Shown here one piece after another: positions 46,061-51,877 of a stretch of DNA of 64,000 nucleotides (its first letter is position 1; every line of letters starts with the position of its first letter). The translations under genes and the position numbers were made by a program. This DNA is from Mesorhizobium sp. C432A (GTDB lineage Bacteria > Pseudomonadota > Alphaproteobacteria > Rhizobiales > Rhizobiaceae). Below the pieces are notes generated by a model that did no database searches, was not told the DNA's origin, and saw only the letters and a list, made by a program, of their open reading frames with translations. The stretch spans positions 5,125,001 to 5,189,000 of the forward strand of contig NZ_CP100470.1 of assembly GCF_030323145.1 (NCBI RefSeq), written 5' to 3'.

Positions 46061-47300
46061 ATGGAGCCCACCATCCTGCATGCGGATCTCGACGCCTTCT
46101 ACGCCTCGTCGAGCAGCTGCTCGACCGGCGCTCAGGGGCAAGCCGATCGCCGTCGGCGGCGGCGTCGTGCTTGCCGCTTCCTACGAAGCCAGGGCTTTCG
46201 GCGTGCGCGGCGGCATGCCCGGACGACGCGCGCGCGAGCTTTGCCCCGGACTGATCTTCGTCGGCGGCCATTTCGCCGACTATCAGCGGCTGGGCGACGC
46301 CGCCATCAAGGTGCTCGACGATTTCACGCCGCTGGTCGAGCGGATTTCCATCGATGAAGCCTTTGCCGACGTCGCCGGCTGCACGCATCTGTTCGGGTCG
46401 CCGGCCGAGATCGCCGCCACGGTGCGTCGGCGCGTCCGGGCAGAGCTCGGCCTGCCGATCTCGATCGGCGTGGCGCGCACCAAGCATCTGGCCAAGATCG
46501 CCTCGCAGGTGGCCAAGCCCGACGGGCTGGTGGTGGTCGATCCGGACACCGAACTTGCCTTCCTGCATGATCTGCCGGTCGGGCTGATGTGGGGCGTCGG
46601 CCCGGCGACCAGAGCGCGGCTGGCCGAGATCGGCATCGAGACCATCGGCCAGTTGGCAAAGACGCATGGTGGGGCGCTGCGAAGATTGCTCGGGCCCGCC
46701 GCCGGCGAAAAGCTGGCGTCGCTGGCATGGAACCGCGACCCGCGAAAGCTCGAAACCCACAGGCGGTCGCATTCCGCCGGCGCGCAGTCGGCGCTTGGCA
46801 GACGGCCGGCCGAGGCGCGTATCTTCGGACCCGTCCTGCTGCATCTGGCAGACCGGGTCGCCAGCCGGCTCAGGGCGAAATCACGGCCCGGGCGCACGGT
46901 GACGGTGCGCGTGCGTTTTGCCGATCTGCACGCTGTCACACGCTCGCTGACGCTCGAGCAGCCGATTTCGGCAACCGCGATGCTGGCCGAAATCGCCGGG
47001 GAGCTGGTGCGCGGCGTGCTGGCCGCCAACCCTCGAGAGAAGACCATCTCGCTGCTGGCGATTTCGGTGTCGCAGATGGAAGAAAGTGCCGAGCTGCAGC
47101 TGGAGCTGCCGCTCGGGCTTGCCGATGAAAAGCAGCGACCCGGCAGCAGGCAAGGCCTGGCGCGCTTTGGCGCCGACCGCGCCATCGACAAGATCCGCCA
47201 GCGCTTTGGCAGAGAGGCTGTCGGCTACGGCGCCGTGGCGCTGGAAGCCCGGCGCTCGGTTCCCGATGCCTTCCGCGAACTGGCGGAAAAGGAACTGTGA
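46061..47300 (+). pseudogene. dinB: dinB, DNA polymerase IV, with two apparent 1-nt deletions
   Basis: ATG 46061 opens MEPTILHADLDAFYAS, the catalytic first strand of Y-family polymerases. The expected VEQLLDPALRGKPIAVGGG follows only if one base is restored near 46107 and another near 46129; after that the frame is open to 47300 with SIDEAFADVAG (catalytic acids), GIGVARTKHLAKIASQ-like palm/finger block and the little-finger domain. Length about 413 residues if corrected. As it stands the N-terminal catalytic Asp is separated from the rest. Two nearby deletions in GC-rich DNA could be sequencing errors or a real null allele. Confidence 0.85.
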
Positions 47301-47534
47301 GTGCGGCGCGACGGCGAGGCCAATGTTTAGGCTGGGCCAGTCCGCGCTGCATTGCCGCTCTGTTTGAGCAGGCCGACCAACCAGGCCAGACCCGCCGCAG
47401 TTTCGGACATTTTTCGCACCGCAACCCGGCCACGCCATGCACGCCCAAGAACAACGCTTTGTCGATGAAGGTGGACTTGCAGTTAGTGCATCGGGACCAA
47501 GAAAACCCGGGACGGGACGACGGCGCCGCGAAGG

Positions 47535-47563
47535 TTGACAGTGCCGATCCGTCTGGCATTATC
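47535..47563 (+). promoter_or_regulatory. Promoter for the precursor-peptide genes
   Basis: TTGACA (47535-47540) and ATTATC (47558-47563) are separated by 17 bp. The first precursor start at 47586 follows with a GGAGG at 47574, so the leader is short. A good sigma-70-type match. Confidence 0.65.
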
Positions 47564-47585
47564 GCGTAAGCTTGGAGGATTCACT

Positions 47586-47684
47586 ATGAAGAAAACCTAT
47601 TCGAAGCCTGTTCTGGTCAAAAAAGGCAAGCTTTCGCAGGTTACGGCGCTCGCCAATGGAGCGGGTTCCGGCCCGATCGAGTGA
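47586..47684 (+). CDS. RiPP (lasso-type leader) precursor-like peptide 1
   Basis: A 32-residue peptide: leader MKKTYSKPVLVKKGKLSQVT, then ALANGAGSGPIE. The leader fits the Y-x2-P-x-L-x3-G-x-L-x3-T pattern recognised by RiPP recognition elements in lasso peptide systems, with Thr at the penultimate position before the presumed core. It has a GGAGG site and a promoter upstream. Two paralogues follow with the same leader and different tails. No processing enzyme is in the window, so modification is unproven. Confidence 0.75.
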   Translation: MKKTYSKPVLVKKGKLSQVTALANGAGSGPIE

Positions 47685-47742
47685 GGTCGTTGAGTCGGAC
47701 TTTCGCCTGATCTGGCGGCCCGCCTTACACTGGAGATGCGGC

Positions 47743-47841
47743 ATGAAGAAGACCTATTCGAAGCCGGTGCTGGTCAAGAAGGGCAAGCTCTCGCAGGTTA
47801 CAGCCGACAATGGTAACGGCTCCGGGCCAGTCGCAGTCTAG
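47743..47841 (+). CDS. RiPP (lasso-type leader) precursor-like peptide 2
   Basis: A 32-residue peptide with the same 20-residue leader as peptide 1 and the tail ADNGNGSGPVAV. Codons differ at synonymous positions from the first copy (for example GTGCTGGTCAAGAAGGGCAA), which shows selection on the leader protein. GGAG lies upstream of the ATG. The tail keeps NG and GSGP from peptide 1, so core variation is moderate. Confidence 0.75.
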   Translation: MKKTYSKPVLVKKGKLSQVTADNGNGSGPVAV

Positions 47842-47914
47842 CAGCCGATTATCCGACGCCTCGTGCCGTCTGGCCGGGAACAGGGCTTTGGGTGCCCGAC
47901 GTGGAGAGTGGAAA

Positions 47915-48001
47915 ATGAAGAAAACCTATCTGAAACCGGTGCTGGTCAAAAAAGGCAAGCTCTCGCAGGTCACCGCGAACGGTGCTTCCAATCCGCGATA
48001 A
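47915..48001 (+). CDS. RiPP (lasso-type leader) precursor-like peptide 3
   Basis: A 28-residue peptide: leader MKKTYLKPVLVKKGKLSQVT (Ser6 changed to Leu) and the short tail ANGASNPR. GGAG precedes the ATG. The tail lacks the GSGP of the first two and ends in Arg, so a different core is likely. It converges on the reverse gene ending at 48033. Confidence 0.75.
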   Translation: MKKTYLKPVLVKKGKLSQVTANGASNPR

Positions 48002-48032
48002 ACCCTTTCACCCCGATTAATCGCGACACGCT

Positions 48033-49223
48033 TCAGCGCACAACCACCAGATCGTCGAGCACGAGCTGCCAATAGTGGCTCGTGGAGAGGCGCACGCGCG
48101 TCACCGCCGCCAGCATCGGCGCATAGTGGACGGGCGCCAGTGCCGACAGGACGATCGTGTCGCTGGCGATCAGCCGGTCGCCAAGCCAGCTCTCGACCAG
48201 TGCGGTTTCGCCTTCGGACTTCAACCATGCCGCTGTCAGCATCACGGAATGGAACCCGAACGGTTTGTCGCTCGAGAATTCGGCCGGGTGTCCGCTGCTC
48301 GTATAGCAGACATGGTCTCCCGAGATATTGCCGTTGACGTAGCCTTCGCTGCCTTCGGTATGATCGCGCGCCAGTGCGTTCAGGTTGAACCAGGTCAACC
48401 CGGCATAACCGGACGGCACCTTGCGTAGGCCGCGCGTCGTGACATCGTCGAAACCGATGGCCTGCAAGGACGCGGCGCTGTCGACAGCCGCGTTCTCGGG
48501 CGACAGCAGGCCGAGCTCGGTCGGGTAGGCGGACAAGGCCAGTCGTCGTTCCATGCCATCGCCGGTGACTTCGATCGCGTCGGCGTCATCGGGCAGATCG
48601 AGACGGAAGCCAGCCCCAGCACTTAGCGGATGCACCGCCACCTCTTGCCCTTTCGCCATCACCGAGATGCTCGCCGAAGCACCGTCCGCTACGCGGCCGC
48701 TGAGCCGGCGTATCGCAAACAGGCCGACCGGCTGCAGCATTGCTTCCGAGGCCAGCCCGGTGGGCGAGCCCGGCAGCGGCCGGAGGTGCTGCGACTGGAC
48801 CTCGTTGGCGCTGCTGGAGCGCCAGCCGGGCGGAACCGACACGGTGAAGCGGTAGCTGCCCGGCACATGGATGGGCGCGGCCCGACGTTTCGCCGACGCC
48901 AGGAAATTGGCAAAGCCGCCGCGGTTGCTCCGCGCCGCGGCGACGAAGCGGCCGTCGCCATCATGCAGTCTGACCATGATGCCGGCCATCGGGCGGTCGC
49001 CGAGCCCGTAGCGGCCGTCGCGATCGGCATCGAAATAGACAAAGGACGAATGATTGAGCTTGCCGTGGTTGCCCGACCAGTCCCGGCGCACGGCGTAGTC
49101 GTTGGCCGGATCTTCACGAAGCCGGGCTCTGAGACGAGACCGCGCCAGCCGCCAGGCGAGAGCCGCAACGACAGCGGCGAACCCGACAAGGAGTATTGCC
49201 TTGATCACGGACGGCTCAAGCAA
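48033..49223 (-). CDS. Membrane-anchored protein with SdrD B-like domain
   Basis: 396 residues. A single N-terminal helix (AILLVGFAAVVAALAWRLAR) anchors it; the rest would be periplasmic. Residues about 58-115 (SSFVYFDADRDGRYGLGDRP, then GIMVRLHDGDGRF) look like an SdrD B-type calcium-binding domain. The C-terminal part (YWQLVLDDLVVVR) is beta-rich, perhaps lectin-like. It converges on the RiPP-like precursors, sharing a short gap. No known family function. Confidence 0.7.
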   Translation of the reverse strand: MLEPSVIKAILLVGFAAVVAALAWRLARSRLRARLREDPANDYAVRRDWSGNHGKLNHSSFVYFDADRDGRYGLGDRPMAGIMVRLHDGDGRFVAAARSNRGGFANFLASAKRRAAPIHVPGSYRFTVSVPPGWRSSSANEVQSQHLRPLPGSPTGLASEAMLQPVGLFAIRRLSGRVADGASASISVMAKGQEVAVHPLSAGAGFRLDLPDDADAIEVTGDGMERRLALSAYPTELGLLSPENAAVDSAASLQAIGFDDVTTRGLRKVPSGYAGLTWFNLNALARDHTEGSEGYVNGNISGDHVCYTSSGHPAEFSSDKPFGFHSVMLTAAWLKSEGETALVESWLGDRLIASDTIVLSALAPVHYAPMLAAVTRVRLSTSHYWQLVLDDLVVVR

Positions 49224-49353
49224 TGCTGTCGGCCCTGCTCATCTGGATCTCCTGCACATACATCGATCCATATATCGATGCTGCAGGCGCTTGAGCAACC
49301 GGACACGGGACCGGCGGACCACGGCATCGGCGTCACATACCCATTTCAGGCAC

Positions 49354-50331
49354 CTATTCCGGCGATGGCACCGGCGGCTTCGTGGTCAGCGCGGCGCCGA
49401 AGGCGGCGACGACCACGGCGGCGACGCCCGCGCATTGCAGCGGGCTCAGGGTCTCGTGCAGGAACAGGAAGCCGGCCAGCGCGCCCAGCGCCGGCTCCAG
49501 ACAAGTCAGCGTGCCGTAGAGCCTGGCCGGCATCCGGGTCAGCGCCACCATCTCCAGCCAGAACGGCAAGGCGCTGGAGAACAGCCCGACCAGCAGCGCG
49601 CTGACCAGGATCGCGGGTGCGATCAGGCCGGTACCCGCCTCGGCTAGGCCGAACGGCAGGGCGAGAGCAGCGGCAATGACCAGCCCGTAAGCCGTGGTCT
49701 GGCTGCCAAGCTCGGCGCCCGCCTTTTGCGCAAAGACGATGTAGAGCGCCCAGCAGCCGCCGGCGGCCAGCGCCAGCATCACGCCGATCGGGTCGAGTGC
49801 ACTGCCGGAGTGGATGAAGGGCGACAACAGCAATATGCCGGCAACGGCCAGCACCACCCAGACGAAGTCGGTGGCGCGCCGCGACGACAGCGTCGCCACG
49901 AGCAGCGGGCCGCAGAATTCGAGCGCCACCGCGACGCCGAGCGGAATTCTGGCGAGCGCTGCATAAAACAGCAGGTTCAGCGCCGCGAGGTTGACGCCGT
50001 AGGCGATGAGCCAGGGCAGCACGGCGCGCGACGGCCGCACCCGCCACGGCCTCAGCACCGCCGCCAGCATCAGCGCCCCCACGACCAGCCGCAGCGCCGT
50101 GGTGCCATTGGCGCCGATCAGTGGAAACAGGCCCTTGGCGAAGGTGGCGCCGATCTGGATCGACACCATGGCGCCAAGCAACGCGCCGATCGGCAAGCCC
50201 TTCGCTTCAGCTGCGGCAATCTGCGTCGACGTCAATTCCAGTCCCTCCGCGCGGTGCGCCGCAGCGTTGGCCCGAGATATGGATAATAGGCCTGGCTGTC
50301 GTGTGGCACGGGCAGACTGTTGATGGGGCAA
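49354..50331 (-). CDS. EamA/DMT family exporter (RhtA-like)
   Basis: A 325-residue protein with ten hydrophobic helices in two EamA repeats (GALLGAMVSIQIGATFAKGL and GVMLALAAGGCWALYIVFAQ). The layout and the ARIPLGVAVALEFCGPLLVA segment resemble RhtA, the threonine/homoserine exporter. The first 45 residues are polar, and a later start near 50190 is possible. Substrate unknown. Confidence 0.85.
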   Translation of the reverse strand: MPHQQSARATRQPGLLSISRANAAAHRAEGLELTSTQIAAAEAKGLPIGALLGAMVSIQIGATFAKGLFPLIGANGTTALRLVVGALMLAAVLRPWRVRPSRAVLPWLIAYGVNLAALNLLFYAALARIPLGVAVALEFCGPLLVATLSSRRATDFVWVVLAVAGILLLSPFIHSGSALDPIGVMLALAAGGCWALYIVFAQKAGAELGSQTTAYGLVIAAALALPFGLAEAGTGLIAPAILVSALLVGLFSSALPFWLEMVALTRMPARLYGTLTCLEPALGALAGFLFLHETLSPLQCAGVAAVVVAAFGAALTTKPPVPSPE

Positions 50332-50548: not shown

Positions 50549-51877
50549 TGTCCGAACCGGATAGATAGGTAACAGAATGGACCGATAGCATGGGTGACAG
50601 TTTTCTTGTCCGCCGGAGGACCGGCGATGGTTTGGCGAGAGACTGGCATCATGGACGAGCGGCTACGGTTTGTTGTGGAGTGTCTTTCTGGGGATGAGAC
50701 GATGGTTGCGCTTTGTGCGGCCTACGGGATCTCACGCAAGAACGGCTACAAATGGCTAGGACGCTATCGGACGTTTGGGCCTGAGGGTTTGCACGACCTG
50801 CCGCGAGCCCCGCTCAATCATGGCCGGGCGACAGCTCAGGATCTGGTTGAGCGGATTGTGGCGGCCAAGGAGCTGCATCCGCTTTGGGGTCCAAAGAAGA
50901 TCGTGGCACGGCTCAGGCGCACGGCTCCCGAGTTCATGTGGCCTTCAGCCTCGACGGTCGGCGCGATCCTTGCGCGGCATGGGCTTGTCCGCGCCCGCAA
51001 GCGACCCCGCCTGCGGGCCTGCGGCAATGGACCCTGGCCACAGCCGCAAGAACCGAACGCGGTGTGGACTGGCGATCACAAGGGCTGGTTCCGGACCCGC
51101 GACGGCTGGCGTTGCGAACCCTTGACGGTGATGGATGCGTCGAGCCGCTACCTCCTGGCGCTCGAAGCGACGGGATCGACGGCCGATAGCGAAGCCTGGC
51201 CGGTGTTCGAACGGCTGTTTGAAGAGCATGGCCTGCCGGATCGCTTCAGAAGCGACAATGGCCCGCCCTTCGCATCGGCCGGCGTCACCGGGCTGACGCC
51301 GCTTGTCGTGCGCTTCATCAAGCTCGGCATCACCTTGGAGCGGATCGCACCCGGCAGGCCACAGCAGAACGGACGTCACGAGCGCTTTCACCTGACCATG
51401 CTGCCGATGGCCGAGGCACCGGAAGCCGACCGAACGGCACAGGGCCAGGCCTTCGAGACCTTCCGCCAAAGCTACAATGAGGAACGTCCCCATGAGGCGC
51501 TGGGCATGGATACGCCCGCCCAGCACTACCGGTCCTCACAGCGCGCCATGCCCAGGACACCACCCGAGCCCGTCTATCCGGCCGAGGCCTCGGTCCGCCG
51601 CGTGCGCCACAATGGCGAGATCCGATGGAATGGCGGCTTCATATATGTCTCGCAAGCGCTGGCGGGCGAACCGGTCGCTGCGTTGGAGACCGAAGACGGA
51701 CAATGGACACTCTCATTCCATGCCCACCCGCTCGGCATCATCGACACACGGCACATGAAGCTTGCCCGCCGCAGCGCCGCGCCAACCAATCCGCTTGGCG
51801 CTGCGGCGGACGCATAGGGGGAGAGAAGTGTCACCTATGTATCCGGTTCAAAGTGTTACCCATCTATCGGCTGGACA
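50549..51877 (+). mobile_element. IS481-family insertion sequence, apparently complete
   Basis: The ends are TGTCC and GGACA, and the inner 50 bp of each end align as imperfect inverted repeats (GATAGATAGGTAACA left; GATAGATGGGTAACA right, reverse complement), each with a second copy like GATACATAGGTGACA. AGGC flanks both sides (50545-50548 and 51878-51881), a likely 4-bp target duplication. One transposase fills the interior. 1329 bp. Confidence 0.88.
50627..51817 (+). CDS. IS481 family transposase
   Basis: A 396-residue transposase. The N-terminus has a helix-turn-helix (LCAAYGISRKNGYKWLGRYR), then an rve integrase core with the DDE triad in VWTGDHKGWF, RFRSDNGPPF and GRPQQNGRHERFHLTM. The start at 50627 (MVWRETGIMDERLRF) has GGAGG 8 bp upstream and fits the family; 50594 is a longer option. 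The frame is intact, so the element may be active. Confidence 0.93.
   Translation: MVWRETGIMDERLRFVVECLSGDETMVALCAAYGISRKNGYKWLGRYRTFGPEGLHDLPRAPLNHGRATAQDLVERIVAAKELHPLWGPKKIVARLRRTAPEFMWPSASTVGAILARHGLVRARKRPRLRACGNGPWPQPQEPNAVWTGDHKGWFRTRDGWRCEPLTVMDASSRYLLALEATGSTADSEAWPVFERLFEEHGLPDRFRSDNGPPFASAGVTGLTPLVVRFIKLGITLERIAPGRPQQNGRHERFHLTMLPMAEAPEADRTAQGQAFETFRQSYNEERPHEALGMDTPAQHYRSSQRAMPRTPPEPVYPAEASVRRVRHNGEIRWNGGFIYVSQALAGEPVAALETEDGQWTLSFHAHPLGIIDTRHMKLARRSAAPTNPLGAAADA

What the first reader, a model, noticed from the sequence alone, without database searches (positions are those of the whole stretch)
47586..48001. Three tandem precursor-like peptides with identical lasso-type leaders and variable tails
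Leaders MKKTYSKPVLVKKGKLSQVT are conserved at the protein level but differ at synonymous positions, and the tails differ (ALANGAGSGPIE, ADNGNGSGPVAV, ANGASNPR). The pattern Y-x2-P-x-L-x3-G-x-L-x3-T is that of RiPP recognition. The tails lack a clear Asp/Glu at positions 7-9 (peptide 1 ends in Glu), so this may not be a lasso. No enzyme is nearby, so a distant or unknown processing system is implied.
Basis: partly seen in the sequence, partly recalled or inferred. Interest (0 to 1): 0.75.

Follow-up and report, generated by a model that had tools for sequence, protein, structure and literature searches.

The report
Scattered peptides served by one cassette
Three tiny genes here belong to a family of short peptides scattered over Mesorhizobium genomes, and genome comparison ties them to one remote set of enzymes that probably cuts and phosphorylates them into short linear peptides instead of knotting them into lassos.

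Summary
The three tandem peptides are real genes. They are 3 of at least 12 at 8 places in this 6.02 Mb genome (genus Mesorhizobium, inferred). Their likely enzymes lie far away: a cassette of PqqD-type RRE, lasso leader peptidase B2, HprK-like kinase and NTP_transf_5 nucleotidyltransferase, without macrolactam cyclase. In 99 congeneric genomes, 67 of 67 with the cassette-type B2 carry the peptides (3-20 each); 1 of 32 without has one, a relic. The B2 type of a true lasso cluster 23 kb away does not predict them. Seven genomes with peptides and cassette-type B2 have no lasso cyclase over cut-off. The tails share one thing: 224 of 226 contain Ser, 212 of them at tail positions 3-6, including 40 of 40 in loci fetched through B2, not through the peptides. 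Best reading: linear Ser-phosphorylated, perhaps phosphoglycosylated RiPPs (tails 5-38 residues, median 10), one cassette serving many scattered precursors. It resembles the linear polyphosphorylated peptides published for Bacillota in 2026, but with B2 instead of an SpI-like peptidase, in Alphaproteobacteria, with scattered precursors. Chemistry, expression, export and function are untested.

The parts
47586..47684 (+). precursor peptide 1 (32 aa): leader to A21, tail LANGAGSGPIE, candidate acceptor Ser28
   Evidence: 58-60 bits against a model that was built with it
47743..47841 (+). precursor peptide 2 (32 aa): tail DNGNGSGPVAV, candidate acceptor Ser27
   Evidence: leader 8 synonymous and 0 nonsynonymous codon differences to copy 1
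47915..48001 (+). precursor peptide 3 (28 aa): tail NGASNPR, candidate acceptor Ser25
47535..47562 (+). promoter-like site TTGACA-16-CATTAT upstream of peptide 1
   Evidence: 24 TTGACA sites lie 40-79 nt upstream of starts in 62 non-redundant upstream regions of the family
47574..47578 (+). ribosome-binding site GGAGG of peptide 1
   Evidence: read; G is the commonest base at -7 to -12 across 113 family members
47732..47735 (+). ribosome-binding site GGAG of peptide 2
   Evidence: read
47903..47906 (+). ribosome-binding site GGAG of peptide 3
   Evidence: read
48033..49223 (-). conserved convergent neighbour, 396 aa, SdrD_B-like below cut-off; similar DNA lies beside 2-4 gene peptide arrays in five other genomes; functional link unknown
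   Evidence: (L058, L061, L063, L066, L077)

Best explanation
The three genes are precursor peptides of a RiPP system whose enzymes lie elsewhere in the chromosome (genome 600,090-603,277): PqqD-type RRE, cysteine leader peptidase B2, HprK-like kinase and NTP_transf_5 nucleotidyltransferase, without a macrolactam cyclase. Shown by comparison: peptides and cassette occur together; the leader and one tail Ser are conserved; kinase and peptidase keep catalytic residues. Inferred: the RRE binds the YxKPxL leader; the kinase (poly)phosphorylates the tail Ser; B2 cuts near the VT-A motif; the nucleotidyltransferase extends the phosphate, perhaps with a sugar; the product is a short linear phosphopeptide. 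One cassette serves many scattered precursors, many with a promoter of their own. Export and function are unknown.
For: Co-occurrence in 99 congeneric genomes: cassette-type B2 in 67, all 67 with peptides; 1 of 32 without (Fisher 7e-25), and that one is a relic lacking start, YxxP and tail Ser. In 151 family genomes the 6 with this B2 score class are the 6 with real leader peptides; four weak extra hits gave no leader peptide on inspection. All 8 loci of at most 53% B2 identity among the 80 come from genomes with peptides, best E 0.0036 or lower in each; in 3 of them (L182, L183, L188) none had been seen beside the cassette. Linkage: a peptide gene inside the fetched locus in 36 of 80 cassette loci; directly upstream of the RRE gene in L095, L096, L102 and L104. 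Cassette constancy over those 80 loci: RRE 80, kinase 80, B2 79, NTase 79. Tail Ser in 224 of 226 (about 54 expected without, P 1.7e-24 if tails were independent), and in 40 of 40 from loci fetched through B2. Kinase His, P-loop Lys and Asp-Asp invariant in the sequences aligned, as reported for PadeK-type kinases (PMC9266682, passages); B2 Cys and His invariant. The RRE of a congeneric cassette (L104) matches lasso RREs TfuB1 and TbiB1 best among solved structures.
Against: No biochemistry. The kinase scores below the family cut-offs (19.2 of 33.3 bits; 27.7 of 200), and its model is nearest to PEP carboxykinases in the PDB. The Ser is not at a fixed distance from the leader (first Ser at tail positions 1-7, rarely 12-14), whereas paeninodin uses the C-terminal Ser and LPP Ser3. 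In G038 all three peptides have Thr at tail position 5 and only one has a Ser, at position 14. Co-occurrence and Ser counts were not corrected for relatedness. 44 of 80 cassette loci have no peptide within the fetched stretch. No transporter belongs to the cassette. Loci and public peptides behind 186 of the 226 tails were fetched with models that included tail columns (the other 40 were not).
Confidence: 0.8

Rival explanations
1. They are lasso precursors matured by the lasso cluster at 626-634 kb, which has RRE, B2, cyclase, kinase, NTase, ABC transporter and its own precursor.
For: Leader matches lasso leader models weakly (NF033528 at 17-23 bits of 33, NF033534 at 16-20 of 30, NF033521 at 14-18.5 of 19). 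A lasso cluster exists in the genome.
Against: 9 of 10 genomes with lasso-type B2 but no cassette-type B2 have no peptides and the tenth has a relic; 3 genomes with cassette-type but no lasso-type B2 have 6 each. Of 14 genomes searched, 7 with peptides and cassette-type B2 (G025, G038, G085, G131, G189, G217, G218) have no lasso cyclase over cut-off, and G131 has no match at all. Asp/Glu at ring positions 7-9 is found in 19 of 226 tails if the cut is after A21, 9 of 226 if after T20, and in none of the three window tails. In this genome the cyclase reading frame is broken.
Confidence: 0.05
2. The tails are attached through the phospho-Ser to a sugar or polysaccharide, so the product is a peptide decoration of exopolysaccharide and not a free peptide.
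For: NTP_transf_5 is a near-constant partner (79 of 80); PsmN, annotated as a nucleotidyltransferase, puts hexoses on phospho-Ser (PMC9266682, passages). Lasso cluster and cassette lie near polysaccharide-type genes here (ORFs read by eye).
Against: No further gene recurs widely beside the cassette except an AMP-ligase and a GNAT (genes shared by only three of the 14 loci were not annotated, apart from one formyltransferase). In the LPP system deletion of lppN changed nothing detectable (PMC13381572, section 7).
Confidence: 0.12
3. The peptides act as leader-only RRE ligands or regulators, with tails under no constraint.
For: Tails vary widely in length and sequence.
Against: Ser in 224 of 226 tails with positional concentration (212 of 226 at tail positions 3-6; shuffle mean 116, maximum 142).
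Confidence: 0.03

Closest known systems
Linear polyphosphorylated peptides (LPP), Bacillota, lpp clusters (PMC13381572, 2026)
   Same: Discrete RRE, HprK-like kinase, NTP transferase, no cyclase, YxxP leader with variable C-terminus, core Ser phosphorylated in LPP, often beside a kinase-bearing lasso cluster in capsule loci (sections 6, 7, 12 read)
   Different: LPP uses an SpI-like peptidase and an MsbA-like exporter and has 1-3 precursors per cluster, 35-200 aa; here lasso B2, no exporter in the cassette, 3-20 precursors per cassette genome of the genus, mostly 26-50 aa, Alphaproteobacteria. The paper states LPP is restricted to Bacillota.
Paeninodin / pseudomycoidin type lasso peptides
   Same: RRE, B2, HprK-like kinase, and in pseudomycoidin a nucleotidyltransferase; Ser phosphorylation in the known members (PMC9266682, passages)
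   Different: No cyclase in the cassette; the Ser is internal, not C-terminal, in nearly all tails (2 of 76 end in Ser); few tails have a ring acceptor
Prochlorosins (recalled, not read here)
   Same: One enzyme set, many genome-scattered precursors with conserved leader and variable core
   Different: Lanthipeptide chemistry; unrelated enzymes
NCBI names 'putative RiPP precursor' and 'lasso RiPP family leader peptide-containing protein'
   Same: Public names of relatives of these peptides
   Different: The names state no enzyme, modification or acceptor; many other entries are 'hypothetical protein' or unnamed

Membership tests
Lasso peptide | macrolactam cyclase tied to the precursor | tested here: not met
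   No lasso cyclase in the cassette (one weak Asn-synthase-like match in 80 loci); none over cut-off in 7 peptide-bearing genomes
Lasso peptide | RRE and B2 leader peptidase | tested here: met
   PqqD 39.1 of 23.4 bits, B2 NF033537 67.8 of 33 bits
Lasso peptide | Asp/Glu ring acceptor at core position 7-9 | tested here: not met
   None of the three window tails; 19 of 226 or 9 of 226 family tails, by the cut assumed
LPP | RRE + HprK-like kinase + NTP transferase without cyclase | tested here: met
   kinase below Pfam cut-off
LPP | SpI-like leader peptidase | tested here: not met
   B2 is the peptidase of the cassette; the rest of the genome was not searched for SpI
LPP | MsbA-like exporter in the cluster | tested here: not met
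   Match to the lasso cluster's ABC protein in 4 of 80 loci; no exporter recognised among genes recurring in the 14 loci compared, but genes shared by three loci were mostly not annotated
LPP | multiple phosphates on a core Ser | not testable with these tools
   Ser conserved; phosphorylation not shown
LPP | RRE falls in the LPP clade | not tested
   No LppB sequence was used; best solved matches are TfuB1 and TbiB1
TIGR04352 HprK-related kinase A | score over the curated cut-off | tested here: not met
   27.7 of 200 bits

The most novel reading that the evidence does not exclude
A separate RiPP family: one cyclase-free lasso-type cassette acts in trans on up to about 20 scattered precursors per genome and makes a set of short linear phospho- (or phosphoglyco-) peptides, in some lineages perhaps also N-formylated or N-acylated by the formyltransferase, or the AMP-ligase and GNAT pair, that lie with the cassette.
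Probability: 0.5. Interest if true: 0.85.

Novelty: new variant of a known kind. Interest (0 to 1): 0.72.

Why it matters
It gives a candidate enzyme set and a candidate modification site to a public family of peptides (176 matches, 120 listed) whose names say at most 'putative RiPP precursor', in a genus of nitrogen-fixing symbionts. It suggests that a cyclase-free phosphopeptide branch of the lasso enzymes is not confined to Bacillota, and that it can run in trans on scattered precursors, which cluster-based genome mining would miss. The prediction is directly testable by gene deletion and mass spectrometry.

Tried and rejected
Lasso product of the nearby lasso cluster: rejected by co-occurrence and missing cyclases. 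Chance ORFs: rejected. RNA element: no Rfam match at gathering scores in 46500-49500. DUF5972 (Pfam): only below cut-off (12-16 of 22.6 bits); the name occurs in no paper of the library. A draw of 337 class genomes with the B2 profile found only the own genome at E<=1e-10 (at most 11 candidates scored per genome in the rows shown), so the cassette seems rare outside the family. The fold search of the kinase model (from L156, pLDDT 91.6) ranked PEP carboxykinases first (E 3e-9, TM about 0.5); by sequence, HPr kinase matches over residues 150-189 only; the kinase label rests on P-loop, motif and context. No solved relative of the B2 profile at E<=1. AMP-ligase matches of 67-71 bits and about 24% identity in 12 loci look like a neighbouring acyl-CoA synthetase and were not counted. 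In the upstream search TTGACA was the clear signal (38 of 76 regions, shuffle maximum 26); some other short G+C-rich words were also slightly over the shuffles and were not followed.

Full report
What is there. The three ORFs at 47586, 47743 and 47915 are as described, except that copy 3 differs at one leader residue. Their leaders differ mostly at synonymous codons (8 and 0, 6 and 1, 7 and 1 synonymous and nonsynonymous). A promoter-like site lies at 47535. Similar arrays of 2-4 genes with other tails lie beside DNA similar to the convergent neighbour in five other genomes.

The family in this genome. The window is 5,125,001-5,189,000 of a 6,020,017-base single contig. A search with peptide 2 found 12 such ORFs at 8 places: the window array, pairs at 4,105 kb and 283-284 kb, and single genes at 500, 600, 5,028, 5,078 and 5,221 kb. 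The weakest had E-values near 1 in that search, and the model later built from them finds them by construction, so 12 is a minimum read by eye, not a test. The aligned consensus is MKKTYxKPVLxKxGKLSxVTA followed by a free tail. Of 176 public relatives 120 were listed; those with an organism name are nearly all Mesorhizobium, called 'putative RiPP precursor', 'lasso RiPP family leader peptide-containing protein' or hypothetical protein. The genus is inferred from these names and from contigs of drawn congeneric genomes that match named Mesorhizobium records in length.

The enzymes. The genome has two PF13471 B2 genes. One belongs to a lasso cluster at 626-634 kb: NTase, lasso-type precursor, RRE, B2, cyclase, kinase and ABC transporter; its cyclase frame is broken here. 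The other, 23 kb away, belongs to a cassette at 600-603 kb: RRE, B2, HprK-like kinase, NTP_transf_5 enzyme and one peptide of the window's type, but no cyclase.

Which enzymes serve the peptides. In 99 congeneric genomes (own included) the peptide model finds 68. PF13471 falls into two separate score classes: lasso type 66-83 bits in 74 genomes, cassette type 42-50 bits in 67; one further match at 26 bits (G216) fits neither, and its genome has no peptides even at E<=1. The classes were checked by gene content in nine of these genomes for the cassette and two for the lasso cluster, and otherwise rest on the score. All 67 cassette-type genomes have peptides (3-20, median 8); 1 of 32 others has one. 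That one, in G245, has lost the start, the YxxP motif and the tail Ser. Ten genomes have the lasso type but not the cassette type: nine have no peptides, the tenth is G245. Three have the cassette type without the lasso type and carry six peptides each. In 151 family genomes from 109 genera the six with cassette-type scores (40-47 bits) are the six with real leader peptides. Ten genomes had a peptide hit at E<=0.01; the other four (G051, G142, G144, G148) gave no leader peptide near the hit. G066 and G077, with lasso-type scores, and five genomes with sub-cut-off B2 matches have none. The eight loci of at most 53% B2 identity among the 80 kept of 110 were used to search their genomes: all eight have peptide hits, best E 0.0036 or lower (threshold 0.05). 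In five of them a peptide had already been seen beside the cassette, so only three (L182, L183, L188) are a blind test.

Why not a lasso. Fourteen genomes were searched for the lasso cyclase model. Five pass the cut-off (G184, G207, G232, G238, G245). In G025, G038, G085, G131, G189, G217 and G218, all with peptides and cassette-type B2, none passes, the best reaching 236 of 525 bits; G131 has no match. The remaining two below cut-off are the own genome (in pieces, 458 bits) and G165 (321 bits, no peptides). G217 is 79% and G038 88% complete, so absence there is weaker. Few tails have an acid where a ring would close (19 or 9 of 226).

The acceptor. With a leader-only model, 226 distinct peptides were collected, assigned after removal of duplicates to 113 public entries, 73 peptide-fetched loci or regions, and 40 B2-fetched loci. 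Tails are 5-38 residues, median 10. Ser is present in 224; about 54 tails should lack it if it were scattered at its own frequency (P 1.7e-24, treating related tails as independent). No other residue shows such an excess; Pro is next with 31 observed against 47 expected without. The two exceptions, both from G038, have Thr at tail position 5; the third G038 peptide has Thr there too and its only Ser at position 14, so this lineage may use Thr. Ser lies at tail positions 3-6 in 212 of 226, against a mean of 116 in shuffled tails, and 151 of 226 tails have exactly one Ser. In the 40 peptides from loci fetched by B2, which the tail cannot have biased, all 40 have Ser. The peptides read from the eight further genomes have one each or more (fetched with the full model, part of them already in the 226).

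How it probably works. The kinase keeps the His, P-loop Lys and Asp-Asp residues described for lasso kinases that phosphorylate Ser (PMC9266682, passages). B2 keeps Cys and His; a third catalytic acid is not evident in all. The RRE of a congeneric cassette matches lasso RREs best among solved structures. So I infer leader binding by the RRE, Ser phosphorylation, leader removal, and extension of the phosphate by the NTase. Cleavage after A21 is inferred from the lasso rule of Thr at -2 (start of the abstract of PMC10368454 in the listing); cleavage after T20, as in LPP, is not excluded.

Closest known. PMC13381572 (sections 6, 7 and 12 read; passages) describes linear polyphosphorylated peptides: RRE, HprK-like kinase, NTP transferase, SpI-like peptidase, exporter, no cyclase, and calls them restricted to Bacillota. 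The present system has the same logic with another peptidase, no exporter in the cassette, another phylum and scattered precursors. It should not be filed as LPP, since two features fail. Ten paper searches listed nothing that describes this cassette or these peptides, judged from titles and abstract starts; only two papers were opened, and the eight listed were not. Subscription papers are mostly missing from that library.

Extra genes. Of 93 cassette loci compared (a few are one genome fetched twice), 16 have a formyltransferase match: in 13 it lies between kinase and NTase, in L096 just after the NTase, in L188 before the RRE gene, and in L186 it is weak and distant. Eight loci of other genera carry an AMP-ligase and a GNAT acetyltransferase next to the NTase, in three of them between kinase and NTase. 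An N-acyl or N-formyl cap is possible and untested.

Noticed in passing
L016:8775-10690 (genome 628,774-630,689): The lasso cyclase of the own genome lies in two reading frames (343 aa piece, then another frame), while G207, G232, G238 and G184 have one frame of 636-641 aa; real damage or assembly error.
   Followed up: partly
L102:9499-10242, L096:11474-12421, L182:10626-12685: The cassette has exchangeable acyl-transfer neighbours: a formyltransferase, or an AMP-ligase with a GNAT acetyltransferase.
   Followed up: partly
window 48033-49223: A 396 aa protein with a sub-cut-off SdrD_B match is a conserved neighbour of the peptide array in five other genomes.
   Followed up: partly
L016:7776-7940: Lasso precursor with Asp at core position 9 if the core starts at GGSG, and a C-terminal Ser, in a cluster with kinase and NTase: looks like a proteobacterial paeninodin-type lasso cluster.
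   Followed up: no
window 50594-51817: IS481-type transposase 2.6 kb downstream of the array.
   Followed up: no
L186: A contig titled Phycisphaera mikurensis (MAG) carries the cassette and a peptide; transfer or a binning error.
   Followed up: no
upstream regions of the family: 24 TTGACA sites lie 40-79 nt upstream of starts in 62 non-redundant upstream regions, so many scattered genes seem to have their own promoter.
   Followed up: partly
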